In this document: positions 23,934 through 48,921 of the stretch, one piece after another | Layout: each line of letters starts with the position of its first letter | Numbering within the stretch: the stretch's first letter is position 1 | Source of the DNA: Gordonia oryzae | GTDB lineage: Bacteria > Actinomycetota > Actinomycetes > Mycobacteriales > Mycobacteriaceae | Reading direction: 5' to 3' | Assembly (NCBI RefSeq): GCF_003797185.1 | Contig: NZ_RKMH01000010.1 | Span: 1 to 64,000, forward strand | Length of the DNA: 64,000 nucleotides | The notes under the pieces: generated by a model | What the model was told of the DNA's origin: nothing | The model's input: the letters and a program-made list of their open reading frames with translations, nothing else | The model's database searches: none | Program-made: the position numbers and the translations under genes

Positions 23934-24070
23934 GCCTCCACCTCACTGCCGGCCACATCGGCGGCCACGAACCGAACGAACACTCAGTGTTCCAACCTAC
24001 TCATGGAATCGATCGTCTGTCAGTGCAGCCTCCGCCACCGGCGGACAGGGACCACCGGCGGCGGAGGGAC

Positions 24071-24089
24071 TTAGGTAAGGCTTCATATA
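24071..24089 (+). promoter_or_regulatory. IdeR/DtxR-like iron box upstream of the importer operon
   Basis: TTAGGTAAGGCTTCATATA against the consensus TTAGGTTAGGCTAACCTAA matches 11 of 12 positions in the left half and about 12 of 19 overall. It lies about 57 bp before the first permease start. Iron-bound IdeR should repress the locus here. The right half is poor. Confidence 0.6.
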
Positions 24090-24145
24090 GACTCGCTGCG
24101 GATCCGGCGAAAGCGGCACCGAGTGCACCGGGAGAGGTGGTGACG

Positions 24146-25198
24146 ATGACGGCAACGGCGGCAGTACCCCCGTCGACACCCCCATCGACGACGACCGCAA
24201 CCCGGCGCCGTGTGCTCACCGTGTCGGTCGCGGTCGTCCTGATGCTGGTGGGCGCGGTGCTGTCGATGTGGATCGGCACCCGCTGGACCGAACCGGCCCA
24301 GGTGATCGACGCCCTGACCGCGGGGCGGGGCCATGGCGGCGACATCGGGATCATCGTGTGGGATCAGCGAATTCCCCGCACACTGATGGCCCTCGCGGTC
24401 GGTGCGGCGATCGCCCTGTCCGGTGCGCTCGTGCAGGGCCTGACCGGCAACCCGCTCGGCGATCCGGGAGTCCTCGGCATCTCCGGCGGCGCCGCATTCT
24501 TCTCCGTGCTCGCGGTCTTCCTCTTCGGCCTGCAGAGCGTGTCGGCCTACGTGTGGTTCGCCGTCGCCGGCGCGATCATCGCGGCCGCCCTGGTCTTCGG
24601 GGTGGCTTCCCTCGGCGGCGGAGGCGCCAACCCGCTGTCACTGATCCTCGCCGGTGCGGCGTGCTCGGCATTCTTCATCGCCGGGACGACGGCGGTGATC
24701 CTGAACGATCAGGCCAGCCTCAACCAGTACCGCTTCTGGAGTGCCGGCTCGCTGGTGGAACGCGACCTCGGCATCCTCGCCGGTGTCGCGCCGCTGATGA
24801 TCGTCGGCGTGGTCGTGGCCCTGGCATGCGGCCCGTCGCTCAACGTGCTCGCCGCAGGTCCGGAACTGGCCACCGCCCTCGGCGTCCGGGTCGGAATGAT
24901 CCGCGGCGCATGCTTTCTCGCCCTGACCCTGCTGGCCGCCGCGGGCACCGCGGCAGCCGGACCGATCGCCTTCCTCGGGCTGGTGGTGCCGCATATCGTG
25001 CGGCATTTCACCGGACCCGACCATCGCTGGCTACTCGTGGCGTGTATGCCCGCCGGTGCCGCGCTGATGCTCGTCGCCGACGTCATCGGCCGGGTGGTCA
25101 TGCGTCCCGCCGAGGTCCAGGTCGGGGTGATCCTCGCGTTCATCGGCGTGCCGGTCTACATCTATCTGGTCCGTCGCCGCCGGATGGTGCAGACATGA
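24146..25198 (+). CDS. Ferric-siderophore ABC permease (FecCD family), subunit 1
   Basis: A 350-residue FecCD-type permease with nine to ten membrane spans. Family motifs are RIPRTLMALAVGAAIALSGA then LVQGLTGNPLGDPGVLGIS, and near the end GPIAFLGLVVPHIVRHFTGP, the coupling region that contacts the ATPase. It corresponds to CchC/CchD of the coelichelin locus. The start ATG 24146 has GGAGAGG eight bases upstream. First gene of a long operon, it overlaps the next gene by ATGA. Expected role: half of the membrane channel importing the ferric siderophore delivered by the lipoprotein at 45855. Confidence 0.93.
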   Translation: MTATAAVPPSTPPSTTTATRRRVLTVSVAVVLMLVGAVLSMWIGTRWTEPAQVIDALTAGRGHGGDIGIIVWDQRIPRTLMALAVGAAIALSGALVQGLTGNPLGDPGVLGISGGAAFFSVLAVFLFGLQSVSAYVWFAVAGAIIAAALVFGVASLGGGGANPLSLILAGAACSAFFIAGTTAVILNDQASLNQYRFWSAGSLVERDLGILAGVAPLMIVGVVVALACGPSLNVLAAGPELATALGVRVGMIRGACFLALTLLAAAGTAAAGPIAFLGLVVPHIVRHFTGPDHRWLLVACMPAGAALMLVADVIGRVVMRPAEVQVGVILAFIGVPVYIYLVRRRRMVQT

Positions 25199-26253
25199 CG
25201 GCCACTCTTCCCCGCCCCGACGAACTCGTCTGGCCGCTACCGCGCATGCGTATCAAGCGCCGAGGGGTGCTGCTGACGCTGCTGCTGGCGGCGATCGTGG
25301 TCATCGCCGCCCTCGTCGAATTGGCGTCGGGACCCTATTTCATCCCGCTGGCCGACGTGGCGCAGGTCGTGGTCGGCGGCGGCGATCGCATCGACCGGGT
25401 GACGGTGCTCGACTGGCGGATGCCGCGGGTGCTGGTCGGTCTCGGCGTGGGTGTGGCGCTAGGTGCGGCCGGTGCGATCACGCAGTCACTGGCCCGGAAT
25501 CCGTTGGCCAGCCCCGATTTGCTGGGCGTCTCGATGGGCGCCTCGGCGGCCGCCGTCACCATGCTCGTGCTACTGCCCGCGGGCCTGCTGATCGGCGGGG
25601 TCACCATCGGAACACTCGGGGCCGCGTTCCTCGGCGGCATCCTGGTGTCCGTCGTCATCACCGCGCTGGCCTACCGGGGCGGGCTGGAATCGATGCGGTT
25701 GGTGCTCATCGGGGTGGGGGTCAATGCCCTGGCCACCGCCGTCATCTCGCTGATGCTGGTGCAGTCGCGTCTGGCCCAGGCCGCCGACGTCGTGTCGTGG
25801 CTGACCGGCTCGCTGGAGGCCCGCACCTGGGGACAGGTCGTCCCGCTGTGGATCACCATCGGCGTCGGGATGTCGTTGATCGCATTGGCGGCGTTCGACT
25901 TTCGGGTCACCCATCTCGGCGACGCCGTCTCCCGCGCGCTCGGTGTACCGATCCGCACCACCCTGTTGTTGCTGTGGATCCCGGCTGTGGTGATGACCGC
26001 GGCGACGGTCGCCGCAGCCGGCCCCATCACCTTCGTCGCGCTGGCCGCACCGCAATTGGCCCGGCTCCTCTATCGCAGCCCCACCCCGCCGGTGATCGGC
26101 AGTGCACTGGTCGCGGCGGCGCTCGTTCTCTACGCCGATCTCCTCGCGCGTTACGCCCTGGGATCGGCTCCGGTCGGCATCGTGACCTCCGCCCTCGGTG
26201 CGCCGTTCCTGCTCATCCTGCTCATCCGCGTGAATCGAAAGGTGACCGTATGA
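25195..26253 (+). CDS. Ferric-siderophore ABC permease (FecCD family), subunit 2
   Basis: A 352-residue FecCD-type permease that should pair with the preceding one. It contains MPRVLVGLGVGVALGAAGAI then QSLARNPLASPDLLGVSMGA, and the C-terminal coupling motif AGPITFVALAAPQLARLLYR. About nine or ten spans are visible. The start overlaps the previous stop (ATGA) and its own stop overlaps the ATPase start, so the importer genes are translated as a block. Two different FecCD subunits plus one ATPase is the usual hydroxamate and catecholate importer layout. Confidence 0.93.
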   Translation: MTATLPRPDELVWPLPRMRIKRRGVLLTLLLAAIVVIAALVELASGPYFIPLADVAQVVVGGGDRIDRVTVLDWRMPRVLVGLGVGVALGAAGAITQSLARNPLASPDLLGVSMGASAAAVTMLVLLPAGLLIGGVTIGTLGAAFLGGILVSVVITALAYRGGLESMRLVLIGVGVNALATAVISLMLVQSRLAQAADVVSWLTGSLEARTWGQVVPLWITIGVGMSLIALAAFDFRVTHLGDAVSRALGVPIRTTLLLLWIPAVVMTAATVAAAGPITFVALAAPQLARLLYRSPTPPVIGSALVAAALVLYADLLARYALGSAPVGIVTSALGAPFLLILLIRVNRKVTV

Positions 26254-27098
26254 GTGCGCCCCCCACCGAGGCCCTGGCCGCCCGCGGCATCAGCGTCGGC
26301 TACCGCGGCACGCCGGTGATCACCGACCTGGACCTGACCATCCCCCGTGGCCGGCTGACCTGCATCATCGGCCCCAACGGCTGCGGCAAATCGACACTAC
26401 TCAAAGCACTGTCGAGGCTGATCCCCATCTCGTCGGGACGGGTGGAGATCGACGGGCGGGCGCTCGGCGATCTGTCCACGCGGGAACTCGCCACCGCGAT
26501 GGCGGTACTGCCGCAGAGTCCGATCGCGCCGGAGGGCATCCTGGTGGCCGACCTCGTCGCCCTCGGCCGCCATCCCCACCAGAGCTGGTTGCGCCAGTGG
26601 TCGGCGGGCGACGGCGATGTGGTGCACGCGGCTCTCGCCCAGACCGGGGTGGCCGACCTCGCCGACCGCACCGTCGATTCGCTCTCCGGCGGCCAGCGGC
26701 AGCGGGTCTGGATCGCAATGGTGCTCGCACAACAGACCGACACCCTGCTGCTCGACGAGCCGACCACGTTCCTGGACCTGTCCCGCAGCCTCGAGGTCCT
26801 CGACCTCATCGACGTCCTGCACACCGAACAGCGGCGGACGGTGGTGATGGTGCTGCACGATCTGGCGCTGGCCTGCCGCTACAGCGACGAGTTGGTCGTG
26901 ATGCGCGACGGCGCGGTGATCACCCAGGGAGCACCGCAGGAGGTGATCACCGAAGAGATGCTGTGGGAGGTGTTCGGTCTGCGTAGCCGCGTCATCGCCG
27001 ATCCGGTGTCGTCGCGGCCGCTGGTGGTACCCGTCGGCGAACGGTGTACCGACATCGTGCCGGGTGGCCGCTCGAAATCACGGGGCCGCACCGTATGA
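26250..27098 (+). CDS. Ferric-siderophore ABC ATPase (FecE family)
   Basis: A 282-residue ATPase powering the importer. Walker A is GPNGCGKSTLLKALSRL (about residues 40-56), the signature LSGGQRQRVWIAM, Walker B TLLLDEPTTFLDLS and the switch His is in MVLHDLALACRYSD. It fits the FepC/FecE/CchE family in length and motifs. ATGA overlaps join it to the second permease and to the first exporter half downstream. The C-terminal 40 residues extend past the usual ATPase core and are basic. Confidence 0.95.
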   Translation: MSAPPTEALAARGISVGYRGTPVITDLDLTIPRGRLTCIIGPNGCGKSTLLKALSRLIPISSGRVEIDGRALGDLSTRELATAMAVLPQSPIAPEGILVADLVALGRHPHQSWLRQWSAGDGDVVHAALAQTGVADLADRTVDSLSGGQRQRVWIAMVLAQQTDTLLLDEPTTFLDLSRSLEVLDLIDVLHTEQRRTVVMVLHDLALACRYSDELVVMRDGAVITQGAPQEVITEEMLWEVFGLRSRVIADPVSSRPLVVPVGERCTDIVPGGRSKSRGRTV

Positions 27099-28927
27099 CG
27101 CAGGCGAAGCCGGAGCACCACGAGTCCGACGCATCCACCCTGCTGCCGATCGCGACGCCGCGTGAGGTGCTCACCTACCTCGGCGCCGAGCTGCGTCGGC
27201 ATCTGCCGCTGAGCATCGGGGTGGTGCTCACCTCGGTCATCGGCGCAGGTGCCTCGCTGGTCGCGGTGCTCGCGCTCGGCTCGATCGTCGACGCGGTCCG
27301 GGCGGGCAACGACCGCGGAATCCTCATCGGCATCGCGATCGCGGTGGTGATCGCCGCGGTGGTGACCGCCGTGTTCACCGCGCTGTCGGAAACGTTGCTC
27401 GCCACCCTGATCGCGCGCCTGCTGGCCACCATGCGCGAACGGGTGGTGGCCGCGGTGCTGTGCCTGCCGGTCACCCGGATCGAACGGGCCGGCCACGGGG
27501 ATGCGCTGTCGCGGGTCGGCGCCGACATCGCGGTTCTCGTCGCGGGCTCGCGCACCGCGATCCCCGCGATCTTGCGCTCGTCGGTGCTCATCGTCGTCTC
27601 GGTGGCGGGCTTGTTCTCCCTCGACTGGCGGTTGGCGCTGGCCGGCCTCGGCGCCGCACCGGCCTATGTCGCGGCCATGCGCTGGTATCTGCCCCGGTCC
27701 TCGCCGAAGTATCGTGAGCTCCGCACCGCCGAGGCCGATCACATCGACCGCCTCGTCGGAGGTATCGACGGGCTGACAACGGTACGTGCCTACGGTCTCG
27801 AGGCCGTCACCCGCGACCGGATCGACTCCTCGGCCCGCTCGGTACGCGACATCTCCGTCTCGGTGTTCGGGGTACTCGAACGGTTCGTCTCGCGCGAGAA
27901 TCGTGCCGAATTCGTCGGCCTCTCACTGATCATCGTCGTCGGATGGCTGCTGCTGCGCGCAGGTGACGTCAGCCTCGGCCAGGTGGCCGCGGCCACCCTG
28001 CTCTTTCATCGGCTCTTCAATCCGATCGGCGCCATCCTGACCTTCTTCGACGAGGCACAGCGGTCGGGGGCGGCGATGACCCGGGTCGTCGGGGTGATCG
28101 ACACCCTCGCTCCGGAAACCCGGCCGCATCTGCCACCCGCCGAGCCGGGGCCGGTGGAGATCGTGGTCCGCGGGCTGCGACACCACTATCACGCGAACGG
28201 CGCCCCGGCCGTCGACGACGTCGATCTGACGATCCCGGCAGGCACGAGTCTCGCGCTGGTCGGCGCCTCCGGTGCCGGCAAGACGACCATCGCCTCGCTG
28301 ACCGCCGGGGTGCTCACCCCGATCGGCGCGCCACCGGACGCGATCCGCTACAACGATGTACCGATCTCTGGTCTCGGCGAGGACCGGATCCGTGCGTTCG
28401 CAAGCGTGGCAACGCAGGAGACCCATGTGTTCGCCGGAACCCTCGCCGACGATCTGCGTCTGGCCCGACCGGACGCCAACGACGCACAGCTGTGGTCGGC
28501 GCTGGCCGAGGTGGGTGCCGATCACTGGGTCCGCGAACTCGACGAGGCCCTCGATACCCGTATCGGCTCCGGCGGCCTCACGCTCGACCCGATGCGCGCC
28601 CAGCAGATCGCGCTGGCACGGCTGTTGTTGCGGGACACCCCGGTGGTCGTTCTCGACGAGTCGACCGCGGAGGCCGGCTCTCGCAGCGCGGCGCGTCTCG
28701 AGGCCGCGGCGGCGGCCGTCACCCGCGGGCGCACCGCGTTGATCGTGGCCCACCGCCTCAGCCAGTCGGCGGCGGCCGATGCCGTCGCAGTCATCGACGG
28801 CGGCCGGGTGGTGGAATACGGCACCCACCGAGAACTCCTCGACGCCGACGGGCGGTACGCCGCGCTGTGGCGCGTGTGGTCGAGCGCGACCGAGCACGAC
28901 GGGATTCGAGAGGACGGCGCCCGATGA
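27095..28927 (+). CDS. Heterodimeric ABC exporter, half with intact Walker A but degenerate signature
   Basis: A 610-residue exporter half: six membrane spans (about residues 35-320), then a nucleotide-binding domain. Walker A is intact (GASGAGKTT), as are the Q-loop (ATQETHVFAGT), Walker B with catalytic Glu (VVVLDEST) and the H-loop (AHRLS). The ABC signature is not: LTLDPMRAQQ stands where LSGGQRQR is expected. The partner encoded next has the opposite defects, so a single canonical ATP site should form between this Walker A/B and the partner's signature. The position inside the siderophore operon suggests export of the iron-free siderophore, comparable to CchG/CchI. Overlaps both neighbours by ATGA. 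Confidence 0.88.
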   Translation: MTQAKPEHHESDASTLLPIATPREVLTYLGAELRRHLPLSIGVVLTSVIGAGASLVAVLALGSIVDAVRAGNDRGILIGIAIAVVIAAVVTAVFTALSETLLATLIARLLATMRERVVAAVLCLPVTRIERAGHGDALSRVGADIAVLVAGSRTAIPAILRSSVLIVVSVAGLFSLDWRLALAGLGAAPAYVAAMRWYLPRSSPKYRELRTAEADHIDRLVGGIDGLTTVRAYGLEAVTRDRIDSSARSVRDISVSVFGVLERFVSRENRAEFVGLSLIIVVGWLLLRAGDVSLGQVAAATLLFHRLFNPIGAILTFFDEAQRSGAAMTRVVGVIDTLAPETRPHLPPAEPGPVEIVVRGLRHHYHANGAPAVDDVDLTIPAGTSLALVGASGAGKTTIASLTAGVLTPIGAPPDAIRYNDVPISGLGEDRIRAFASVATQETHVFAGTLADDLRLARPDANDAQLWSALAEVGADHWVRELDEALDTRIGSGGLTLDPMRAQQIALARLLLRDTPVVVLDESTAEAGSRSAARLEAAAAAVTRGRTALIVAHRLSQSAAADAVAVIDGGRVVEYGTHRELLDADGRYAALWRVWSSATEHDGIREDGAR

Positions 28928-30573
28928 GCCGGACACCCGACCATGCCGCGGTGGCCCTGCTGCGCGACGCTGTCCGACGCAATCGCGGCGCGGTGGCGGT
29001 GGGCTCGGTACTGCTGTGCGTGTACCAGGCAGCCGAGGCGGCGGTGCCGGTGCTCCTCGGTGTCATCATCGATCGAGCGATGACCTCGGACAGCTGGTGG
29101 GCACCGGTGATCTCGATCGCGGCCCTCGGTGCGGTCATCGCATGCGTGTCGGTGTCGTGGCGCACCGCCTACCGTGGGCTGCAGCGCGCCAATGCCGGAC
29201 ACGTGCGTCACCTGCGGGCGATGTTGTCCGCCAAGGTGATCACCGCGCGGGACAACGATTCACCACTGTCGCGCGACGAGTACGTCACGGTGATCGCCGA
29301 GGACACCGCACAGGCCTCCGACATCACCGAGGTGATCCCGGTGACCATCTCCTCGGCGGTCGGTGTGCTGGCCGGTGCCGTGGTGCTGACGGTGATCGAT
29401 CCCCTGCTGGGCAGCGTCGCCCTGATCAGTACGGTGCTCCTGCTGGCCATACTGAACCTGTTGTCGCGCAGGGTCACCCACCGAACCGAGGAGCAACAGG
29501 AGTTCATCGCCCGGGCCACCGGAGCGGTCGTGGATCTGTTGCGCGGACTACGGCCGCTGAGCGGCTTCGCCGGGCGCGGCCCGGCATACGACCGCTACCG
29601 CACACTGTCGGCCACCACGCGCGGCCACGCCGAACGCCTGGCCCGAATCTCCGGCGTGTACGAGGGCATCTCCGCCGGTGCCGCAGCCCTTCTCGTCGGC
29701 GTGGTCGGCACGCTGGCCGGCGTCCGCGCATTCTCCGGAGACATCTCCATCGGCGATCTGGTCGCGGTGGCCGGACTCAGCCAATTCATCGCCGAACCCC
29801 TCGGTCAGCTCAGCCGGATGCCTCGATTCGCTGCGCTGGCACGGGGTTCGGCCCGCCGGGTGGTGCTGCTGGGATCCGGGCGCACCGGCGAGGGGGGCGA
29901 GTCGGTGACCACCCCGGCGCCGTCGGACACGGTCCACCGCAGTACGCATCCCGACCTCCTCGTGCGGGTGGACACCACCGAGATCGCCGTGACCGCAGGC
30001 GCCCTGGTGGCGGTCGACTGCACCAGCGACCAAGCAGCACGGGTGGCCACCGCTCTCGCGGCGGGGCCCGATGCGCCCCCCGAGGCACCATCGATCTCGG
30101 TGCGCGGCACCGAGATCGGTGATCTCGACGCGGCCGGTCTCCGGCGGGTGGTGCTCGCCGATGCGCGGCACCCGGCGATCTTCGGCGGCCGCCTGGGCGC
30201 GGTCGTCCACCCCGACGGGACGCACTACGAGCCCGGTTCGGAGCCGGCGGACATCCTCACCGAGTTGGGTCTCGACGAGTTGGTCGACGACACCGCCGCG
30301 CTCCTGGATCATCCGGTCGCCGACCGCGGGAGCAACCTCTCCGGCGGACAACGCCAGCGGGTGGCACTGGCCCGCGCGCTCCATGCGAATCCGGACATCC
30401 TTGTGCTGGTGGATCCGACCTCCGCGGTAGACGCGGTGACCTCGGCAATCACCGCCGACACGGTCCGCCGACGCCGGCAGGGAAAGACCACTCTCGTCCT
30501 CGCCGCGAGTCCCGCGTTTCTCCGGTTGGCCGACAATGTCGTATATTTGGAGGACAAACAAAGGCTAGGCTAA
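28924..30573 (+). CDS. Heterodimeric ABC exporter, half with degenerate Walker A
   Basis: A 549-residue exporter half with six spans and a nucleotide-binding domain that cannot hydrolyse ATP by itself. Where Walker A should be it reads VAVDCTSDQAARVATAL with no GxxGxGK. Walker B ends LVLVDPTS, so the catalytic Glu is Pro, and the H-loop His is Ser (LAASPAF). The signature NLSGGQRQRVALARAL is perfect. This complements the preceding subunit exactly. The stop codon lies inside an IdeR-like box that precedes the monooxygenase gene. Substrate is inferred from location only. Confidence 0.87.
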   Translation: MSRTPDHAAVALLRDAVRRNRGAVAVGSVLLCVYQAAEAAVPVLLGVIIDRAMTSDSWWAPVISIAALGAVIACVSVSWRTAYRGLQRANAGHVRHLRAMLSAKVITARDNDSPLSRDEYVTVIAEDTAQASDITEVIPVTISSAVGVLAGAVVLTVIDPLLGSVALISTVLLLAILNLLSRRVTHRTEEQQEFIARATGAVVDLLRGLRPLSGFAGRGPAYDRYRTLSATTRGHAERLARISGVYEGISAGAAALLVGVVGTLAGVRAFSGDISIGDLVAVAGLSQFIAEPLGQLSRMPRFAALARGSARRVVLLGSGRTGEGGESVTTPAPSDTVHRSTHPDLLVRVDTTEIAVTAGALVAVDCTSDQAARVATALAAGPDAPPEAPSISVRGTEIGDLDAAGLRRVVLADARHPAIFGGRLGAVVHPDGTHYEPGSEPADILTELGLDELVDDTAALLDHPVADRGSNLSGGQRQRVALARALHANPDILVLVDPTSAVDAVTSAITADTVRRRRQGKTTLVLAASPAFLRLADNVVYLEDKQRLG

Positions 30574-30578
30574 CCAAA
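30560..30578 (+). promoter_or_regulatory. IdeR/DtxR-like iron box before the ornithine monooxygenase
   Basis: AAAGGCTAGGCTAACCAAA matches 15 of 19 consensus positions, with a near-perfect core AGGCTAACC. It covers the TAA stop of the exporter gene (30571-30573) and ends about 17 bp before the monooxygenase start. It marks a second iron-regulated promoter for the biosynthetic genes. Confidence 0.75.
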
Positions 30579-30594
30579 TCATAGGTGGGTGATA

Positions 30595-31953
30595 GTGAAG
30601 CCGATGACCACAACTCGCGACGTGGTGGGCGTGGGGTTCGGCCCGGGAAACCTCGGGCTCGCGATCGCCATGAGCGAATACGACGACGCAGACCAGAACT
30701 CTCCACCGCTCGACGCGGTGTTCCTCGAACGTCGCCACACGTTCGGCTGGCACCCCGGCATGCTCCTGCCCGGGACCAACATGCAGATCTCGTTCCTCAA
30801 GGACCTTGTCACCCAACGGAATCCGCGCAGCCGATTCACCTTCGTCAACTATCTGGTGGAGAAGGACAGGCTGACCGGCTTCATCAACCGGCAGACCTTC
30901 ACCCCCGAACGGGTCGAATTCGCCGACTACCTGTCCTGGGTCGCCGACCACGTCGCCGCCGATGTCCGCTACGGCCGCACCGTGATCGGGATCGAACAGG
31001 TCGGTCCCCACGACGCCGACGCCCCGGCGGGAGCACGCTTTCGCGTGGTGACCACACTGGACGACGGCTCGGTCGAGACATACTTCTCGCGCACCGTCGT
31101 CGTCGCGCTCGGCCTGCGAGAACGGTTGCCGGAGTGGGCCGATCGCCCCGAGCTCACCGAGAGCGGCCGGGTCTTCCACAACCACCGCTTCCTCGACCAT
31201 CTCGACGCCCTGCGGGCCGACATCGCCGGATCGGAATTCCTGGTCGTCGGCGGTGGGCAATCGGCCGCCGAGGCCATCGACCACCTCTACACCCGGGGCG
31301 CAGTCGTCACCTCCACCTTCCACGGCTATGGCTTCGCCCCCGCCGACGACAGCCCGTTCGCCAACCAGGTGTTCGACCCCTCCGCGGTGGACGATTTCTA
31401 CGCCGCATCCGAGGATGTCCGTGCCGACCTGCTCAATCGGCATCGCTACACCAATTACTCCTGTGTGGAGCCGCAATTGCTGACCACCCTGCACGATCAC
31501 CACTACCGCGAGTCGGTGACCGGCCAGAACCGACTGCACCTGCGCCGATCGACCGCGGTGACCTCGGCGTCGGTCACCGATCGGGGTCGTGTGCAGGTGG
31601 AGTTGTTCGACCGCATTCATCGCACCCGCGACACCATCACCGTCGATGCCGTCGTCTGCGCCACCGGATTCACCTCACCCGGCGTCGAGGGCATCAGCAC
31701 CATCGGCGACACGTGCGTCGTGGGCCGCGACCACCAGGCGATCGTCGACGGCACCCGCATCGCCGGACTCTTCGTCCAGGGAGCCACCCAGGGCACCCAC
31801 GGTCTCGGGGCCACCCTGCTGTCCAACATCGCCATCCGGGCCGGCGAACTGCGCTCGGCCATCATTTCCGAACTGGCACAGCCGGAACAGGCCGAAGCGG
31901 ATTTGGCGGCGTCGGGACGGAGTGGGCCGCATCGCTCCCATCCGGGCATGTGA
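30595..31953 (+). CDS. L-ornithine N5-monooxygenase (siderophore)
   Basis: A 452-residue flavin-dependent N-hydroxylating monooxygenase of the PvdA/SidA/CchB group that turns L-ornithine into N5-hydroxyornithine with NADPH and oxygen. The FAD motif is VVGVGFGPGNLGLAIA, followed by NMQISFLKDLVTQRNPRSRF, which is typical for this family. The NADPH motif is VVGGGQSAAEAI, and the C-terminal FAD-closing motif is LFVQGATQGTHGLGATLLS. I take GTG 30595 as start because AGGTGG lies six bases before it; GTG 30589 or ATG 30604 are alternatives. Lysine versus ornithine is not certain from motifs alone, but the two hydroxyornithine codes in the next gene favour ornithine. Confidence 0.93.
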   Translation: MKPMTTTRDVVGVGFGPGNLGLAIAMSEYDDADQNSPPLDAVFLERRHTFGWHPGMLLPGTNMQISFLKDLVTQRNPRSRFTFVNYLVEKDRLTGFINRQTFTPERVEFADYLSWVADHVAADVRYGRTVIGIEQVGPHDADAPAGARFRVVTTLDDGSVETYFSRTVVVALGLRERLPEWADRPELTESGRVFHNHRFLDHLDALRADIAGSEFLVVGGGQSAAEAIDHLYTRGAVVTSTFHGYGFAPADDSPFANQVFDPSAVDDFYAASEDVRADLLNRHRYTNYSCVEPQLLTTLHDHHYRESVTGQNRLHLRRSTAVTSASVTDRGRVQVELFDRIHRTRDTITVDAVVCATGFTSPGVEGISTIGDTCVVGRDHQAIVDGTRIAGLFVQGATQGTHGLGATLLSNIAIRAGELRSAIISELAQPEQAEADLAASGRSGPHRSHPGM

Positions 31954-32082
31954 CCTCACCCCACCATCCCGGCTCGATATCACCCGGTCCGACTCCACAG
32001 GGTCCCCACCATCACGGGCCTATCCGCCGGCAGTGCATGAACGTGTCTCTCGCATGCCGCCGGCGCCACAGAGAGGTTGACG

Positions 32083-38000: not shown

Positions 38001-41000
38001 GGTCGATCACGCGCTGACCCGCATCCCGGCCGATCTCGCCTGCGCACTGCGCGATGCGCGGATCACCGTGCTCAATCAGACGCCGACGGCCTTCGCCGCG
38101 CTCGACGCGACTGGCGTGACGCTTCCGGATCTGCGGTACCTGATCTTCGGTGGCGAACGTCTCGAGCCGGCGCTGACCGGCCGGTGGCTGGATCGCCACC
38201 CCGATGCGGTGGCGATCAACATGTACGGGATCACCGAAACCACGGTGCACGTCACGGCGCTGGGGATCACCGAAGGGATACGCGAGGACTCGGGCAGCCC
38301 CATCGGCCGTCCACTCGACGGTCTGGTGACGCATGTGCTCGACGAGCAACTCCGTCCGGTGGCGGTGGGCGACACCGGCATCCTGTACGTCTCCGGACCG
38401 CAGGTGTCGGCGGGATACCACCGGCGTCCGGACCTGACCGCCACCCGATTCGTCGCAAACCCGTTCCGTATCAATGCTTTGCGAGCCGGTGGCTACCGTC
38501 TGTACTGCTCCGGTGATGTGGTGCGGGTGCGGGCCGACGGCGGCATGGATTACATCGGGCGGGCCGATCGGCAGGTACAGGTACGCGGCTTCCGGATCGA
38601 GACGGGCGAGGTGGAGGCCGCGTTACGCCGCTCCGGTGTCGCCACCGAGGCCGCGGTCGTGGCCGTCGACACCGCCGACGGCCCGCGCCTGCGTGCTGCG
38701 ATCGTCGCCGACGGCGCACCGGGCTCCGGCGGGGATCACGCGGCTCGCGCGCGGCGTGCGGCCCGCGAGTCCCTTCCGGCGCACATGGTGCCCGACGAGG
38801 TGCTCGTGGTGGATGCCCTCCCGCGCACCGTCAACGGCAAACGCGACGACGACCGGCTGCGGGAACTACTCGCCGCGATCCCCGTCGCCGAGATCCCCGA
38901 GGTGGCAGCACCGGACAGCGGGGATCCCCACGTCCCGGACTCGCGGGTCACCGCCGTGGCGTCGGTGATCGCCGAAGCCCTCGACGTCGACGAGGTCGGC
39001 GGCGATGACGATTTCTTCATGCTCGGCGGCGACTCGATCGTGGCGATCCGGGTGGCCAACCGCCTCGCCGCGCGCGGTGTCAAGGTGACCCCGCGCGATG
39101 TGTTCCTCGGCCGGACCCCGGCACGGATCGCCGAACGCCTCGGCGCCGACGCGGTGGCCGTCATGAGCAGTGCGGCAACCGATTCCGGAGCCGGCGCGGC
39201 ACCCGTGCCGACGCCCATCCTGCTCCGCCAGCACGAGTGGGGATTCCCCGGCGACCTGGTGCAGGCACGGCTGCTCCGGACGCCGCAGGGCGTCACCGCC
39301 GATCAGCTCCGCGCTGCTCTCACCGCCGTCGTCCAGGCGCACCCGATGCTCGGCGCCGTGATCACCGGCACCGAGCCCGAAGCGGCGCTGTCGATCTCGA
39401 TGCCGGATTCCGGTCCGGTGGCGCCGCCGGTGCGGGAGTCGGCGTCGGCCGACCCGGTCGATGCGGTGCCTGAACTGATCGGCGACATCAGCCTCGCCGA
39501 CGGCCGACCGATCGCCGCCGCCCTCCTCGACGCCGGACACGGCGTGGTGCTGCTGGCCCACCATGCGGTGGTCGACAGCGTGTCGTGGATGGTCATCATC
39601 GACGACCTCGAGCAGGCCCTTCGTGGCGGGCGTCCGGTTGCGGAGCCGAGTTCGTATGCCACGTATGCGCAGCAGGTGATGCGCGCGGCCTACAGCCCCG
39701 TCATCACATCGGACCTCGGTCATTGGCGAGACCTGCACACCACCGAGCCTCTGGTCGCGGCAACGGTATTCGACGCAGACCGGATCACCGCCCACACCGT
39801 CGAGGTCGACGGTCCGGAGGTGGCCGTCGTCGTCGACGAGGCCGCGCCCGCGCTCGGCGGGGCGGTCACCGAGGTGATCGTCGCCCTCATGCTTGCGTCG
39901 ATCGCACGTCTGCTCGGCACCGAACCCACCCTGCTCGTCGACGTCGAAGGGCACGGTCGCCCCGATCCGGGTGACCCGGTGCGCGGCGGCGACGCGGCAC
40001 TGGACTGCGGTCGCACCGTCGGATGGTTCACCCAGATCGCTCCGGTGCGGGTGACGGCCCGCGCCGACGCCGCGGTGACTTCCCGCGAACTGACCGCCGC
40101 TCTCGCCGATCGGCCGGACCCGTTGGGCTACATGGCCTTACGCCACGTCCACGCGCGGACGTCACGACTGCTCGCCGAGGGCGGCGCACAGATCCTGGTG
40201 AATTATCTGGGCCGCGGCGAGAGCCGTGAGGTGCTGCCCACCCCGCCGCCGTCCGCCCCGCCGCGCACCCCGTACGCCGTCGAGGCCGACGTCTGGGTCA
40301 GTGGGTCACCACCGCGCCTGGTGGTGCAATTCGCCGTGGCCGAGTCGATCTCGGAGATCGCCGGCCAGGAGATCACCGCCGAAACGATCACCGACGCGGT
40401 GCGGAGCAGCGTCGGTGCGCTGGCCGCCGAGATCGACCGGACGGCCGATCGCGGCCCGGTGCAGGTGCCGCCGACGGTGTTGCAGCGTGGCCTGCTGTTC
40501 CAGTCACAGGTCGCGCCGTCGGGGTCGTATCACGCGCAGACCGCGTTGACCTTCGATCGCGAGATCGACCCGGATCAGCTCGCCGAGGCGTTCGCCGACG
40601 CCGTCGTCGTGCACCCGGCGATGGGCGCGCGATTCGACCTGGCCGCGGCAACACCCACCCAGTACCTACCCGGCCGTGACGAGCGCGTGCTGTTGCCGGT
40701 CGAGATCGTCCACACCGACGGCACCTCGGCCGACGAGCACACCCTGCGGGAACGTGATCGCGCACAGCCGATTCCGCTCGATCGTTCACCCGCAGCCCGT
40801 GCGACCATCGTCCGACGCGCAGGCCACGGAGACACGGTGTTGTTCACCTATCACCTCGCACTGCTCGACGGGTGGTCGAGGGCGCGTTTCCTCACCGAGT
40901 TCCTCGACCGGTTGCACGATCGCGAACAGTCCGCGGTGCGTACCCCACGGCCGGCACGGCCCGGCTTCGCCGAGGTTGCCACACTGCTCGAGGACCGAGA

Positions 41001-43560: not shown

Positions 43561-43591
43561 GAAAACACGATTTCGGCCCGTCACAGCAGGG

Positions 43592-44830
43592 TCAATGCCG
43601 TGTGGTGAGCTCGTCGCAGAGGTCACGGAGCAACGCGAGCCGCCACACGGCGTGATCGTGGCCGCCGTCGATGACGCGCATCACCACCCGGGCACCCCGG
43701 TCGGCGAGCGCAGCACGCACCGCATCGACGTGCCGGTGCAAGGCAGGCTCGCCACTACCGACGGTGAACCGGAACGAGCGGGCCAGCGACGAGAGGTCGA
43801 ACGTGTCGTCGTCGAGTTCTCCGAGGACCGCACCACCGTCGGGTCCGTCGAGTGGCCCGCCCGCCGCCGGAGCCGGCCACCAGAACGAGGGTGATTGTGC
43901 GACAACGGCATCGATACCCTGTGTCGCCGAGCCCGCGCGCGCGGCGGCCACCGCGGCACGCACCGCGGCGATTCCGCCGAGGCTCTGCGCGGCCAGGACG
44001 GTGTATCCGCGACACAACCCGCGCCCGACGAGATCGGCGTCCACGGCGGCCAGCACCGACGTCGCCACCGCGGATGCCGTTGCGGCCGAGGTCAGTTCGT
44101 CCTCCCGCGCCGACCGGTCGAGCGGTGCGGGCAGGTAGGCCAATGCCACCGAGTCGAGCACGGACACCCACTCGGACGATCCGGCGGCCGCGGCGGCCAG
44201 CGCGGACGACAGCGGATACAGGTGCAGCCAGTCATCGCCGTCGAGCAGCAACACCACCGGGACGACGCCGTCGTCGGCGGGCCGACGCGGAACGCTCAGG
44301 TGCATCGTCGCGCGACGTCCGAGGACGCCACGATCGAGTCGAATGCGCTGCGGGCGAGCACCTTCGGCCGCCTCGGCGGCCCCGTCGGGCGAATCCGGTC
44401 GCCACAGGTCCACCCCGTCGAGCCCCGACCGCGGCGCGTGCGGATGGGTGAGCAGCGACACCAGCCCACCCGGGCTATCGGCGTTGAACGGGTCGGCGCC
44501 GGGTGCATCGTCACCGAGTGCGATGCGATAACTGGTTGCCGGAAAGGCGATCTCGACGCGGGCGACGCCGGGCGCCTCGGGCAGCGGCAACGACGCGCCA
44601 CCCACCAGCGCCGCGAGATCGTCGGCCGCGATCGGCACGAACCCGACCGTCGGACCGCCGTCCTCGCGGACGACGGTGGCGCGGCGCGCGTCGAGGTCGG
44701 TGATCAGCAACGCCTCGGCACCGCCGTCGGGCAGGACGCGATATCGCGGCCAGCACGGCGATCTGCGCTCATCCACGAGATCGAAGACCACCCCGGGGTG
44801 CGGTGTGAGCAGATCAGCGGAGACGGTCAT
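43592..44830 (-). CDS. Ferric-siderophore esterase (Fes/CchJ-like alpha/beta hydrolase)
   Basis: A 412-residue enterochelin-esterase-like hydrolase: an N-terminal beta domain typical of Fes (SPCWPRYRVLPDGGAEALLI, then VEIAFPATSYRIAL) and a C-terminal alpha/beta-hydrolase domain with VPVVLLLDGDDWLHLYPL, the nucleophile elbow VLAAQSLGGIAAVR, and the catalytic His in VIDGGHDHAVWRLALLRDL. Convergent with the NRPS, ending 31 bp from it. In the coelichelin locus cchJ encodes such an esterase, suggested to release the product because the NRPS lacks a thioesterase; the alternative role is opening the ferric siderophore after uptake. AAAGGG precedes the ATG. It shares a divergent iron-box promoter with the formyltransferase. 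Confidence 0.88.
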   Translation of the reverse strand: MTVSADLLTPHPGVVFDLVDERRSPCWPRYRVLPDGGAEALLITDLDARRATVVREDGGPTVGFVPIAADDLAALVGGASLPLPEAPGVARVEIAFPATSYRIALGDDAPGADPFNADSPGGLVSLLTHPHAPRSGLDGVDLWRPDSPDGAAEAAEGARPQRIRLDRGVLGRRATMHLSVPRRPADDGVVPVVLLLDGDDWLHLYPLSSALAAAAAGSSEWVSVLDSVALAYLPAPLDRSAREDELTSAATASAVATSVLAAVDADLVGRGLCRGYTVLAAQSLGGIAAVRAAVAAARAGSATQGIDAVVAQSPSFWWPAPAAGGPLDGPDGGAVLGELDDDTFDLSSLARSFRFTVGSGEPALHRHVDAVRAALADRGARVVMRVIDGGHDHAVWRLALLRDLCDELTTRH

Positions 44831-44856
44831 TTCGACCCTTTCGTAGGATTGACTAA

Positions 44857-44875
44857 TAAGCTAAGGCTCAACTAA
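44857..44875. promoter_or_regulatory. IdeR/DtxR-like iron box between esterase and formyltransferase
   Basis: TAAGCTAAGGCTCAACTAA matches about 14 of 19 consensus positions. It lies in the 51-bp gap between two divergent genes, 27 bp from the esterase start and 6 bp from the formyltransferase start, so one site could repress both directions. Confidence 0.6.
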
Positions 44876-44881
44876 CCTACC

Positions 44882-45826
44882 GTGGTGCGCGTAGTGACCT
44901 TCGGTTATCAGACCTGGGGACACCGGACTCTCACCGCGGCCCTGAATTCGGGGCACGACGTCGTCCTGGCCGTCACCCATCCCACCAGCTCTCACCCCTA
45001 CGAGCAGATGTTCAGCGACTCCGTCGAGGATCTCGCGCGGGCCCACGAGGTTCCGGTCCACGTGGCCCTACGGGCTGACGACGCCCTGATCGACGCGGTG
45101 CACCGGGCCAAGCCCGACGTGATCCTGGCCAACAACTGGCGGACTTGGCTACCCAAGAGCGTCTTCGACCTGCCCACCCACGGCACCCTCAATGTCCACG
45201 ACTCCCTGCTGCCCGAGTACGCGGGGTTCTCGCCGGTCCTCTGGGCCCTACTCAATCGGGAGAGCCGCGTCGGGGTGACGGTCCACCGCATGGACGAAAC
45301 GCTCGACGGCGGCCCGATCGTGGCGCAGCAATCGATTCCGGTGGGACCGACGGCCACCACCACCGAACTGGTGGCGGCCACCACCGACCTGATCGAACCC
45401 CTGGTGCTCTCGACGTTGTCGGCGCTCGCCGAGGGCACCCTCACCGATCACCAGCAGGACCCGGCTCGCGCCACGTACTTCCACAAGCGCTCCGACCGCG
45501 AGTCCCGAATCGACTTCACCGCGAGCGCCGCCGACATCGAGCTGTTGGTGCGCGCCCAGTCCGACCCGTACCCAAACGCGCACTTCCGATTCCGTGGAGA
45601 GCGGTTGCGGGTGATCCGCGCGCACGTGTCGCGGGGTCGCTTCGGCGGCACCCCCGGACGCGTCACCGTCGAATGCGAAGGCGGCATCGCGGTGGTGTGC
45701 GGCTCCGACGCCCCCAATCGTCCGGCCCCGGCGATCGTTCTCGATCGTCTGCGCCTCGACGACGGCCGGGAGGTACCGGCCACCGAGCACTTCGGCACGC
45801 GTGCCGGTTATGTGGACGAAATCTGA
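44882..45826 (+). CDS. N5-hydroxyornithine formyltransferase (CchA-like)
   Basis: A 314-residue member of the methionyl-tRNA formyltransferase fold. The catalytic Asn, His and Asp are visible: LNVHDSLLPEYAGFSPVLWA and, further on, VHRMDETLDGGPIVAQQ. The C-terminal domain is present. The start VRVVTFGYQTWGHRTL and the gene context differ from housekeeping Fmt. In siderophore loci this enzyme formylates N5-hydroxyornithine with N10-formyltetrahydrofolate, supplying the residue read by the first adenylation domain. No Shine-Dalgarno site precedes the paired GTG codons at 44882/44885, and the iron box ends six bases upstream, so a leaderless transcript is possible. Confidence 0.9.
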   Translation: MVRVVTFGYQTWGHRTLTAALNSGHDVVLAVTHPTSSHPYEQMFSDSVEDLARAHEVPVHVALRADDALIDAVHRAKPDVILANNWRTWLPKSVFDLPTHGTLNVHDSLLPEYAGFSPVLWALLNRESRVGVTVHRMDETLDGGPIVAQQSIPVGPTATTTELVAATTDLIEPLVLSTLSALAEGTLTDHQQDPARATYFHKRSDRESRIDFTASAADIELLVRAQSDPYPNAHFRFRGERLRVIRAHVSRGRFGGTPGRVTVECEGGIAVVCGSDAPNRPAPAIVLDRLRLDDGREVPATEHFGTRAGYVDEI

Positions 45827-45854
45827 TCGGCTTCGCCGAGAGAACACAGGAGAT

Positions 45855-46877
45855 ATGGTGACGTTCAACAAAATTCGTGGTGGTGCGATCCTGATGGCGC
45901 TCGTCGCCCTGGTGGCGGCGCTTCTCACGGCCTGCGGCTCGGATTCGGACGACTCGTCGTCGAGCGCGGCGCCGGCGGCCGAGCAGGGTGCACTGCCGGC
46001 GACCATCACCCACAAGTTCGGTTCCACCAAGGTCACCGCGGTACCCAAACGCGTGGTGTCGCTGGGCTACACCGACCAGGACGCATTGCTCGCGCTCGGC
46101 GTGGTGCCGGTGACGGTGCGCAACTGGGACGGCATGACCACCACCAAGGGCGCGGCGGTCGGCGCATGGGCCACCGACCTGCTCAAGGGCCAGAAGCCGG
46201 AGATCTACAACGCCGAGGAGATCGATCCGGAAGCCATCGCCGCGATGAAACCGGATCTGATCGTCGCCGTCTACTCCGGTATCGACAAGAACACCTACGA
46301 CGCGCTGTCCAAGATCGCCCCGGTGATCGCACAGAAGGCCGATTACGCCGACTACGAGCAGCCGTGGGACGTGACCACCGAGGAGATCGGTGCCGCGGTC
46401 GGACAACCCAAGAAGGCCGCCGAACTCGTCGCAGGCGTGAAGAAGAAGATCACCGACCTCGGCGCCGCCCACCCGAATTGGAAGGGCAAGACCATCAGCG
46501 TCGCCACCTATGACGGCAGCGCACTGTCGGCGTTCTCCGCGGCCGATCCCCGTACGCGGTTCTTCACCTCGCTCGGCTTCACCCCGAACACACAGGTCGA
46601 TCAGGCCGCCGGGGACAAGTTCTATGCGACGCTGTCGCTGGAGGAAGCACGCAAGCTCGACACCGACGTGATCGTGTGGGATCAGCTGTCCTACGCGCCC
46701 AAGGGCAAGCAGACGATCCTGGACCAGAGCGCGCTGGCGAACCTGCCCGCGGTCAAGAACAACCACAGCGTCTACCTCCAGGGTGAACTCGAGAAGGCGT
46801 TCGGCTGGCAGACCGTGCTCAGCCTCGGTTACGTCGTCGACAACATCGGGACGCCGCTGGCGCAGGCTGCCGGATAG
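45855..46877 (+). CDS. Ferric-siderophore binding lipoprotein
   Basis: A 340-residue type 8/FepB-FhuD-like solute-binding lipoprotein. The signal peptide ends in lipobox LLTACG (Cys about 27), followed by a Ser/Asp/Ala-rich linker. The binding domain starts TITHKFGSTKVTAVPKRVV, continues with SLGYTDQDALLALGVVPV and IAAMKPDLIVAVYSGIDKNT, and has the long spanning helix of the family. It should capture the ferric siderophore outside the membrane and deliver it to the two FecCD permeases at 24146-26253, although it is encoded 20 kb away with the formyltransferase. AGGAG precedes ATG 45855. A strong terminator follows. Confidence 0.93.
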   Translation: MVTFNKIRGGAILMALVALVAALLTACGSDSDDSSSSAAPAAEQGALPATITHKFGSTKVTAVPKRVVSLGYTDQDALLALGVVPVTVRNWDGMTTTKGAAVGAWATDLLKGQKPEIYNAEEIDPEAIAAMKPDLIVAVYSGIDKNTYDALSKIAPVIAQKADYADYEQPWDVTTEEIGAAVGQPKKAAELVAGVKKKITDLGAAHPNWKGKTISVATYDGSALSAFSAADPRTRFFTSLGFTPNTQVDQAAGDKFYATLSLEEARKLDTDVIVWDQLSYAPKGKQTILDQSALANLPAVKNNHSVYLQGELEKAFGWQTVLSLGYVVDNIGTPLAQAAG

Positions 46878-46896
46878 TTCCGGCACCTATCGACGA

Positions 46897-46939
46897 GGGC
46901 CCGTACCGTCACCTCTCCCCGAGGTCTCGGTACGGGCCC
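46897..46939 (+). terminator. Rho-independent-type terminator after the binding-protein gene
   Basis: A perfect 12-bp stem GGGCCCGTACCG / CGGTACGGGCCC with a 19-base loop, followed by TTCTCAT. It separates the formyltransferase/binding-protein transcript from the ABC exporter gene. The U-tract is short, as usual in high-GC actinobacteria. Confidence 0.75.
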
Positions 46940-47013
46940 TTCTCATACTCCGGGACCAGTCGTTCTGTTCCTGCCTGGACATCAAGTTCACTCGAAGTTC
47001 TAACCTGGCTGCC

Positions 47014-48921
47014 ATGAGTATGGAATCGGTCGCGTGGGACGTCATGTACAAATCGACGATCTCCCCCGACGGCACGCCCCGCAGTTCGGATCGGCGCGGC
47101 ACCCTGCGCCGAATCGGGGGATTCGCCCGCCCGCATGCCCGCCGAATCGTCGCCTTCCTGGTGCTGTCGATCTTCACCGCAGTGCTCACGGTGGTGACGC
47201 CAGTGCTGGCCGGGCACGTGGTCAACCTGATCACCGCGCAGGATTCCGGAGCTGCCGCGGCCATCGCGGGCTTTGCCGGCCTGATCGCCGTGATCGCGGT
47301 GGCCGAAGCGGCGGCGTCGGTGGTGACTCGATGGCTCTCGGCGAACATCGGCGAGGGTCTGATCCTCGATCTGCGCCGCGCGGTCTTCGACCACGTGCAA
47401 CGCATGCCCGTCGCGTTCTTCACCCGCACCCGCACCGGCGCCCTGGTGAGCCGGCTCAACAACGACGTCATCGGCGCCCAACGTGCGTTCAGTGACACGC
47501 TCTCGGGGGTGGTGTCGAATCTGGTGACACTGGCGCTCACGCTGGGTGTGATGATCGCGATCAGCTGGCAGATCACGGTGCTGGCGTTGATCCTGTTGCC
47601 GGTCTTCGTCATTCCGGCCCGCCGCCTCGGCAAGCGGATGGCGGCGTTGTCACGCGAGGCCGCAGAACACAACGCCCGGATGTCGACGCAGATGACCGAA
47701 CGGTTCTCCGCCCCGGGAGCGACGCTGGTCAAACTGTTCGGACGCCCGGAGCAGGAGTCGGCGGAGTTCGCCGACCGCGCGGATCGTGTGCGCGACATCG
47801 GGGTTCGGCGCGCGATGCTGCAGACCGTGTTCATAACGGCGCTGACGTTGGTCTCGGCGCTGGCACTGGCATTGGTGTACGGACTCGGGGGCTGGCTGGC
47901 CGTGCACCAGCACCTGTCGGCCGGGGCCGTCGTCTCCCTGGCCCTGCTGCTCACCCGCATGTACGCGCCGCTGACCGCGCTGGCCAACGCCCGCGTCGAG
48001 ATCATGAGTGCGCTGGTCAGCTTCGAGCGGGTCTTCGAGGTGCTCGACCTGCGACCACTGATCGTCGACAAGCCCGACGCCGTCGACGTCCCCAGTTCCG
48101 ACGCCGGGGTGTCGGTGCGCTTGCGTGACGTGTCGTTTGCCTACCCGTCGGCCGACAAGGTGTCGCTGGCCTCCCTGGAAGAGGTTGCGCAACTGGATAA
48201 TCGGGGTGGCCAGACGGTGCTGCACCACATCGACCTCGAGGTCCCCGCCGGCGGCATGCTCGCCCTCGTCGGCAGCTCCGGCGCCGGCAAGTCGACCATC
48301 GCGTCGCTGGTCACCCGCCTTTACGACGTCGATGACGGCAGCATCGAGCTCAATGGCGTGGATCTGCGTGACCTCACCAGCACCGCCGTGCACCGCACCG
48401 TCGGACTGGTCACCCAGGACGGCCACCTGTTCCACGACACCGTCCGCGCCAATCTTGTTCTGGCACAGCCGGAGGCATCCGACGACGAGATCTCCGAGGC
48501 GCTGCGGCGGGCACGACTCGAGGAGTTGATCGCGTCGCTGCCCGAGGGCCTCGACACCGTCGTCGGCGAACGCGGCTACCGCCTCTCCGGCGGCGAGCGG
48601 CAGCGGCTGACGATCGCGCGACTGCTCCTGGCGAGGCCGTCGGTGGTGATCCTCGACGAGGCCACCGCACATCTGGATTCGACGTCGGAGGCCGCGGTCT
48701 CCGAAGCGCTCGGCGAGGCGCTGGCCGGACGCACCTCCATCGTCATCGCGCATCGCCTCTCGACGATCCGCGCCGCCGATCAGATCGCCGTCATCGAGGA
48801 CGGCCGGATCGTCGAACGCGGTGACCACCCCACGCTTCTCGCGCGAGGCGGCCGGTACGCACAGCTCTATCGCACGCAGTTCGCCGCCGACGACGAGGCG
48901 TACCGCGCAGCCGAGGCGTAG
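47014..48921 (+). CDS. ABC exporter, fused membrane and ATPase domains
   Basis: A 635-residue half-transporter that probably works as a homodimer. A cytosolic N-terminus (MSMESVAWDVMYKS) precedes six spans (about residues 50-340) and a complete nucleotide-binding domain: Walker A GSSGAGKST, Q-loop TQDGHLFHDT, signature RLSGGERQRLTIARLLLA, Walker B VVILDEAT, H-loop AHRLST. This differs from the degenerate pair at 27095-30573. As the last gene of the siderophore locus it is a second candidate for exporting the siderophore, comparable to CchI, but its own promoter after a terminator leaves room for an unrelated role. Start ATG 47014, or ATG 47020. Confidence 0.9.
   Translation: MSMESVAWDVMYKSTISPDGTPRSSDRRGTLRRIGGFARPHARRIVAFLVLSIFTAVLTVVTPVLAGHVVNLITAQDSGAAAAIAGFAGLIAVIAVAEAAASVVTRWLSANIGEGLILDLRRAVFDHVQRMPVAFFTRTRTGALVSRLNNDVIGAQRAFSDTLSGVVSNLVTLALTLGVMIAISWQITVLALILLPVFVIPARRLGKRMAALSREAAEHNARMSTQMTERFSAPGATLVKLFGRPEQESAEFADRADRVRDIGVRRAMLQTVFITALTLVSALALALVYGLGGWLAVHQHLSAGAVVSLALLLTRMYAPLTALANARVEIMSALVSFERVFEVLDLRPLIVDKPDAVDVPSSDAGVSVRLRDVSFAYPSADKVSLASLEEVAQLDNRGGQTVLHHIDLEVPAGGMLALVGSSGAGKSTIASLVTRLYDVDDGSIELNGVDLRDLTSTAVHRTVGLVTQDGHLFHDTVRANLVLAQPEASDDEISEALRRARLEELIASLPEGLDTVVGERGYRLSGGERQRLTIARLLLARPSVVILDEATAHLDSTSEAAVSEALGEALAGRTSIVIAHRLSTIRAADQIAVIEDGRIVERGDHPTLLARGGRYAQLYRTQFAADDEAYRAAEA

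What the first reader, a model, noticed from the sequence alone, without database searches (positions are those of the whole stretch)
24071..48921. A coelichelin-type siderophore locus in a mycolic-acid actinobacterium
The NRPS architecture A-T-E-C-A-T-E-C-A-T without thioesterase, with a formyltransferase, ornithine N5-monooxygenase, Fes-like esterase, FecCD-FecCD-FecE importer, binding lipoprotein and ABC exporters, is gene for gene the coelichelin set of Streptomyces coelicolor (cchA-J). The three adenylation codes extracted by eye, DINYWGGIGK, DFWNIGMVHK and DMENLGLINK, match what I recall for CchH modules 1, 2 and 3. The neighbouring Rv0407-Rv0417-like block is mycobacterial in type, so the locus is likely a transferred or shared island beside fgd. 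Predicted product: the tetrapeptide D-hfOrn, D-allo-Thr, L-hOrn, D-hfOrn, or a close relative.
Basis: partly seen in the sequence, partly recalled or inferred. Interest (0 to 1): 0.85.

Follow-up and report, generated by a model that had tools for sequence, protein, structure and literature searches.

The report
Coelichelin-type siderophore island in Gordonia
A Gordonia bacterium carries a ten-gene set, inserted between two old neighbour genes, that should make and recycle an iron-gathering peptide of the coelichelin kind; the kind is known, but the insertion site, the gene order and an odd enzyme domain shared with its relatives are details worth testing.

Summary
In 15 aligned sequences (window included) codes 1 and 3 are identical; code 2 varies at two positions. 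The host is a Gordonia: G. polyisoprenivorans VH2 has this enzyme at 94% identity.

Corrections. (1) The exporter at 47014-48921 is an old fgd neighbour, not a cluster gene: it lies within 3.6 kb of fgd in 31 of 56 Gordonia regions without the cluster. The island is about 24.0-46.97 kb, ten genes. Of 59 Gordonia genomes searched, 3 have it. (2) It is not a recent Streptomyces copy: it falls in a Gordonia/Dermatophilus/Corynebacterium clade, and its order is that of Corynebacterium dentalis. (3) It lacks cchK (MbtH); the genome's only MbtH is on another contig.

Extra result: the last condensation domain reads HLxxxDG, not HHxxxDG, in all coelichelin-type enzymes examined. Variants without the second His precede the hydroxyornithine code in 53 of 53 cases, and 25 of 29 in a second sample. 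Product and function are predictions.

The parts
24007..46974 (.). coelichelin-type island, outer limits (ten genes), inserted between the fgd promoter region and an ABC exporter gene
   Evidence: whole-window blastn of 27 cch-less fgd loci reaches at most 24006 on the left (24003-24006 in 6 of 27) and restarts at 46975-46996; exporter-side match starts at 46975 or 46976 in 16 of 17 (46996 in one)
24071..24089 (+). IdeR/DmdR-like box (perfect left half TTAGGTAAGGCT, poor right half, 5 mismatches in all) before the importer operon
   Evidence: half-site: only hit in the window, none in 100 shuffles; half-site conserved in G030, G031; consensus recalled
24146..25198 (+). FecCD permease (CchC/D-like)
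   Evidence: 42-45% to the non-Corynebacterium coelichelin-type loci
25195..26253 (+). FecCD permease (CchD/C-like), ATGA overlap
26250..27098 (+). FecE ATPase (CchE-like), ATGA overlap
   Evidence: 60-67% to the non-Corynebacterium coelichelin-type loci
27095..28927 (+). ABC exporter half, CchG-like, ATGA overlap
   Evidence: 49-53% to the gene before the NRPS in the non-Corynebacterium loci
28924..30573 (+). ABC exporter half, CchI-like, ATGA overlap
   Evidence: 38-43% to the gene after the NRPS in the non-Corynebacterium loci
30560..30578 (+). IdeR/DmdR-like box (4 mismatches) before the monooxygenase gene
30589..31953 (+). L-ornithine N5-monooxygenase (CchB-like); the only full-length one of 12 PF13434 matches in the genome
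32083..43560 (+). trimodular NRPS A-T-E-C-A-T-E-C-A-T, no TE (CchH-like)
40849..40875 (+). non-canonical motif YHLALLDGW in the last C domain (HL for HH)
43592..44830 (-). Fes-like esterase (CchJ-like), proposed release enzyme or iron-release hydrolase
44857..44875 (.). IdeR/DmdR-like box (3 mismatches) in the divergent esterase/formyltransferase promoter
44882..45826 (+). formyltransferase (CchA-like)
   Evidence: 70% to C. dentalis, 53-56% to the Streptomyces and Kitasatospora loci where it was found
45801..46877 (+). siderophore-binding lipoprotein (CchF-like)
46895..46941 (+). strong inverted repeat after the binding-protein gene, likely end of the island's last transcript
   Evidence: fold of 46881-46965: -44.4 kcal/mol, no shuffle control; not listed by the consensus terminator scan
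22911..23933 (-). fgd-like (luciferase-like monooxygenase family) gene, old left neighbour, not part of the cluster
   Evidence: match in 59 of 59 Gordonia
47014..48921 (+). ABC exporter, old right neighbour of fgd, not part of the cluster
51004..54897 (+). A-T-hexapeptide (Pls-like) protein, conserved fgd-region gene, not part of the cluster
   Evidence: 53 of 56 regions

Best explanation
The stretch 24.0-46.97 kb is an iron-regulated coelichelin-type island. The CchB-like monooxygenase hydroxylates ornithine N5, and the CchA-like enzyme formylates part of it. The trimodular NRPS loads formyl-hydroxyornithine (made D), threonine (made D-allo) and hydroxyornithine, and gives a coelichelin-like tris-hydroxamate, most simply a four-residue one made by using module 1 twice. 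The Fes-like esterase releases the peptide or later frees iron. The CchG/CchI pair exports it, and the FecCD-FecCD-FecE importer with its lipoprotein brings back the ferric form. The sole MbtH of the genome, from another NRPS cluster, probably serves in trans. Shown here: gene content, codes, island, relatives. Inferred: every chemical step, regulation and MbtH sharing.
For: Domain order and codes. Codes shared by the 14 relatives aligned with the window, code 2 varying at two positions. The ten genes match the ten genes of the Streptomyces-type loci, whose order fits SCO0489-0499 as described in passages of PMC12161575. Three IdeR/DmdR-like boxes, one before each of three island promoters, conserved in two relatives. 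No IucA/IucC match, one full-length ornithine monooxygenase and one MbtH, on contig 30, in the genome. Empty site in other Gordonia.
Against: No product is known. The boxes are imperfect (3, 4 and 5 mismatches): in 60 simulated windows 0.23 are expected at up to 4 mismatches (2 seen) and 1.6 at up to 5 (6 seen, three of them not at these promoters); a stricter pattern found none. No MbtH in the locus. The composition of coelichelin with two hfOrn comes from the finding and recall; the passage read in PMC9854754 states two threonines and iteration of module 2 instead.
Confidence: 0.85

Rival explanations
1. The locus makes a close relative of coelichelin rather than coelichelin itself, for example a three-residue peptide, a threonine-rich variant, or one with a cyclised hydroxyornithine end as in amychelin. 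(This overlaps with the best explanation, which commits to a coelichelin-like product.)
For: Codes do not fix chain length, iteration or release; code 2 varies N/S and I/V between relatives; the Gordonia clade is separate from the Streptomyces one.
Against: Same codes in the aligned Streptomyces relatives; same ten genes as the Streptomyces-type loci.
Confidence: 0.3
2. The island was passed recently from Streptomyces.
For: Patchy presence, 3 of 59 Gordonia; clean empty site.
Against: Separate, fully supported clade with Corynebacterium and Dermatophilus; different gene order and 43-46% NRPS identity to the Streptomyces, Kitasatospora and Lentzea loci.
Confidence: 0.04
3. The island is ancestral in Gordonia and was lost in most species.
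For: A protein named G. sinesedis is a 59% relative, so within Gordonia the clade is not confined to the polyisoprenivorans group.
Against: None of 56 other fgd regions gave a match to the cluster queries that were printed, and 17 keep a gap under 200 bases between fgd and the exporter match. The site of the G. sinesedis copy was not tested.
Confidence: 0.3

Closest known systems
Coelichelin cluster cchA-K, Streptomyces coelicolor SCO0489-0499 (described in PMC12161575, passages; not itself compared)
   Same: by way of 26 Streptomyces, Kitasatospora and Lentzea loci: trimodular NRPS, monooxygenase, formyltransferase, esterase, importer set, two exporter halves; same three codes in the aligned Streptomyces relatives
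   Different: gene order rearranged (binding protein and formyltransferase at the right end, both exporters before the NRPS), no MbtH gene, 43-46% NRPS identity to these loci
Coelichelin-like locus of Corynebacterium dentalis (L055); clusters similar to coelichelin are reported in C. striatum (PMC10486106, passages read)
   Same: same order of all ten genes; formyltransferase 70%, binding protein 52%, monooxygenase 52% identical
   Different: C. dentalis has an MbtH gene between FecE and the first exporter; its chromosomal site was not examined
Exochelin-type loci of Mycobacterium (L025, L030; the name exochelin is my inference)
   Same: related exporters, monooxygenase and binding protein; code DMENLGLINK preceded by a C domain with HF in the motif
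   Different: NRPS of about 7600 residues; different architecture and product

Membership tests
coelichelin (cch) cluster | NRPS A-T-E-C-A-T-E-C-A-T, no thioesterase | tested here: met
coelichelin (cch) cluster | codes for hfOrn, Thr, hOrn | tested here: met
   same codes in aligned Streptomyces relatives; meaning of the codes recalled, no held paper prints the first code
coelichelin (cch) cluster | ornithine monooxygenase and formyltransferase | tested here: met
coelichelin (cch) cluster | Fes-like CchJ with catalytic Ser and His | tested here: met
   alignment to 3mga and 2b20
coelichelin (cch) cluster | CchCDEF importer and CchG/CchI exporters | tested here: met
coelichelin (cch) cluster | MbtH gene (cchK) in the locus | tested here: not met
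   also not found in 13 of 27 coelichelin-type loci as fetched, some of them cut short, so not a strict marker
coelichelin (cch) cluster | Streptomyces gene order | tested here: not met
   order equals that of C. dentalis
coelichelin (cch) cluster | iron regulator boxes | tested here: inconclusive
   three imperfect but conserved boxes
coelichelin (cch) cluster | direct comparison with S. coelicolor CchH | not tested
   no S. coelicolor record among the 80 loci returned
coelichelin (cch) cluster | product is coelichelin | not testable with these tools
   needs LC-MS

The most novel reading that the evidence does not exclude
Condensation domains that accept free N5-hydroxyornithine form a natural class that works without the second His of HHxxxDG, long argued to be the catalytic base. 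In the coelichelin enzyme the last C domain reads HL; elsewhere HF, QF, QV or RF occur, the Q and R forms with no His at all. The acceptor's own hydroxylamine, a good nucleophile that needs no deprotonation, could replace the base or be the site of acylation. This might explain how three modules build four residues with a branch at the side chain.
Probability: 0.3. Interest if true: 0.65.

Novelty: new member of a known kind. Interest (0 to 1): 0.42.

Why it matters
It extends coelichelin-type siderophores to a defined insertion in Gordonia, with a matching empty site, a gene order shared with Corynebacterium, and a possible dependence on an MbtH from another cluster. The odd C-domain motif gives a handle on two open questions: how a three-module synthetase makes a four-residue product, and what the second His of C domains does (its role is called debated in PMC11546977, passages read).

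Tried and rejected
Recent transfer from Streptomyces: disfavoured by the tree and gene order. The right-hand exporter as a third siderophore exporter: rejected. The Pls-like and alpha/beta-hydrolase genes as cluster parts: rejected, they lie beside fgd without the cluster. A plasmid-borne close copy: the formyltransferase search of plasmid records gave 8 records, all under 60% identity; the best, a Tsukamurella plasmid, carries an NRPS, MbtH and isochorismate genes, a different siderophore set. Mutual exclusion with desferrioxamine: IucA/IucC in 22 of 59 Gordonia and 0 of the 3 with the island; three close relatives are too few to conclude. A strict iron-box pattern gave nothing. One search used an antisense reading of MbtH; its hits were discarded and redone (my notebook says 13 of 27; the correct count is 14 of 27). 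I first thought that the HL domains acylate N5 only; siderophores with a cyclised terminal hydroxyornithine (PMC6024995, passages read) do not obviously fit that, so I keep it as a hypothesis.

Papers. Of the 12 papers that hold Gordonia, siderophore and coelichelin I read passages of four (PMC10100984, PMC12161575, PMC7767326, PMC7347517). I also read passages of PMC9680422 and PMC13036778 and searched PMC11117675 without a hit. None of these passages describes this cluster in Gordonia. Searches (25 of 546 listed; 25 of 253; 12 of 12) were otherwise seen as listings. So 'not in print for Gordonia' is not established. For the C motif I saw the listings (20 of 72; 15 of 15) and passages of PMC11546977, PMC6024995 and PMC5550956; no report of the link was seen.
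Full report
Host and observation. The window's NRPS (32083-43560) is 94% identical to one from Gordonia polyisoprenivorans VH2. In an alignment of 15 sequences chosen (the window and 14 relatives) codes 1 and 3 are identical in all and code 2 varies only N/S and I/V.

Gene content. Left to right the island holds FecCD, FecCD, FecE, two exporter halves, ornithine N5-monooxygenase, NRPS, a Fes-like esterase on the other strand, formyltransferase and binding lipoprotein. The first five genes are linked by four ATGA overlaps. The esterase aligns the serine and histidine of Fes.

Comparison with Streptomyces-type loci. I judged 27 coelichelin-type by NRPS length and neighbours: 26 from Streptomyces, Kitasatospora and Lentzea, one from Corynebacterium. 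In the 26 the order is FecCD-FecCD-FecE-binding protein-exporter-NRPS (L028 begins at FecE), with the second exporter after the NRPS in 25 (L019 ends inside the NRPS). Monooxygenase and formyltransferase usually lie at the left; the monooxygenase is elsewhere in L040 and L045, and one or both were not found in some loci. This order fits SCO0489-0499, for which PMC12161575 places CchCDEF at SCO0494-0497 and CchG/CchI at SCO0493 and SCO0491 (passages read). The window's order differs but equals that of Corynebacterium dentalis (L055), to which the formyltransferase is 70%, the binding protein 52% and the monooxygenase 52% identical. In the other loci where they were found the formyltransferase is 53-56%, the binding protein 33-37% and the monooxygenase, over its full length, 37-40% identical. 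A tree of the first module (32 rows) puts Gordonia, Dermatophilus and Corynebacterium in one clade (support 100/100) and Streptomyces, Kitasatospora, Lentzea and Nonomuraea in its sister (100/100). Dermatophilus is a long branch, and the branching inside the first clade is open.

The island. Of 59 Gordonia genomes searched, 59 have an fgd match and 3 have this NRPS (93-100% over the 1150-residue query; the next best is 48%). In a sample of 249 genomes of the order, 9 match at 1e-190; besides the window, two of them (51% identity) have an open frame of coelichelin length. I took the fgd region of the 56 other Gordonia; the room to the right of fgd was 1.4-11 kb. In 21 the match to the window's right-hand exporter starts within 1.4 kb of fgd, in 10 it lies 1.7-3.5 kb away, in 25 it was not found. 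The Pls-like gene was found to the right in 53. None of the 56 gave a match (E up to 1e-15) to the FecCD, monooxygenase, esterase, formyltransferase or binding-protein queries (FecE, the two exporter halves and the NRPS were left out of the printout). Blastn of the whole window against 27 cch-less fgd loci reaches at most 24006 on the left (24003-24006 in 6) and restarts on the right, where it does, at 46975-46996. In 17 genomes with a gap under 200 bases the exporter-side match starts at 46975 or 46976 in 16 and at 46996 in one; the fgd-side figures of that call are capped by the end of its query at 23956. So the island lies within about 24007-46974, and the exporter is not part of it. A strong inverted repeat at 46895-46941 (-44.4 kcal/mol for an 85-base stretch, no shuffle control) separates the binding-protein gene from the exporter; the consensus scan did not list it.

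Regulation. IdeR/DmdR-like boxes lie at 24071 (perfect left half), 30560 and 44857, before the importer operon, before the monooxygenase and between the divergent esterase and formyltransferase. All three recur in G030 and G031. In 60 simulated windows 0.23 hits are expected at up to 4 mismatches (largest 3) and 2 are seen; at up to 5, 1.6 are expected (largest 5) and 6 are seen, three of them not at these promoters. PMC12161575 counts four DmdR1 sites in the S. coelicolor locus.

MbtH and other siderophores. The genome has one MbtH match, on contig 30 near very large NRPS genes. The window has none. Of 27 coelichelin-type loci 14 carry one, among them C. dentalis; some of the rest are cut short. 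The genome has no IucA/IucC match and one full-length ornithine monooxygenase among 12 PF13434 matches. So this is the only hydroxamate route recognised here; salicylate-type routes were not searched.

The odd C domain. The last C domain reads YHLALLDGWS. In the ungapped register the second His is Leu. HL is found in 15 of 15 aligned proteins (window included) and 26 of 26 loci (L019, truncated, left out), while the first C domain is HHxxxDG in all of them. Over the loci fetched by then plus the window, 42 HL, 8 HF and 3 QF domains are all followed by the code DMENLGLINK; of 162 HH domains 3 are, and for 43 no A domain was found. That count took only motifs followed by W/Y-S and only these four pairs; rarer pairs were dropped as likely chance. 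That sample was recruited partly by a pattern of that A domain (FAFDMSW), so I drew a second one with A3 alone from 394 genomes of the class (it may share species with the first, and it holds only DMEN domains). Thirty-seven genomes matched, the window's own included; of the 38 other matches 29 gave loci, all with the code DMEN. Twenty-five of 29 have HL (19), HF (2), QV (2), QF (1) or RF (1) before it and 4 have HH. So HH also occurs with this code, and the link is strong but not complete. MAFFT and an HMM built from HH domains both place the motif without a gap. A one-residue insertion that keeps a His remains possible for HL and HF. In the Q and R variants (4 of 29) no His is left in either reading. 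Shared descent of a C-A pair can explain the spread; it does not say why the residue was lost and stayed lost. The role of this His is described as debated in PMC11546977, which also reports another natural variant, HQxxxDM (passages).

What is known. Clusters similar to coelichelin are reported for C. striatum (PMC10486106, passages). A survey of Gordonia specialised metabolism (PMC9680422, passages) has no word containing 'chelin' in its main text. No passage that I read describes this cluster in Gordonia, but most listed papers were not opened, so absence from print is not shown. The composition of coelichelin with two D-hfOrn is from the finding and my recall; PMC9854754 states two threonines, a conflict I could not settle.

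Verdict. A real, nearly complete coelichelin-type cluster, ordinary in kind, with a well-defined insertion site and the Corynebacterium gene order; the C-domain signature is the part most worth an experiment.

Noticed in passing
window 51004-54897: Pls-like A-T-hexapeptide protein of 1297 aa, found to the right of fgd in 53 of 56 Gordonia regions without the island; substrate not determined.
   Followed up: partly
G000 contig 30, about 197.8-260.2 kb: Very large NRPS genes (open frames of 13461, 4645 and 2762 aa) near the genome's only MbtH match; frames of similar size occur in several other Gordonia.
   Followed up: no
L206 (Tsukamurella tyrosinosolvens plasmid NZ_LR134468.1): Plasmid-borne siderophore set with NRPS, MbtH, monooxygenase, formyltransferase and isochorismate genes.
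   Followed up: no
L097, L098 (G016, G052): A 48% identical NRPS in open frames of about 2400 aa in two other Gordonia genomes, perhaps a different siderophore line.
   Followed up: no
window 32083-32700: The N-terminal part of the NRPS contains a short tandem repeat LDTVAA, and no Pfam match was listed before residue 215.
   Followed up: no
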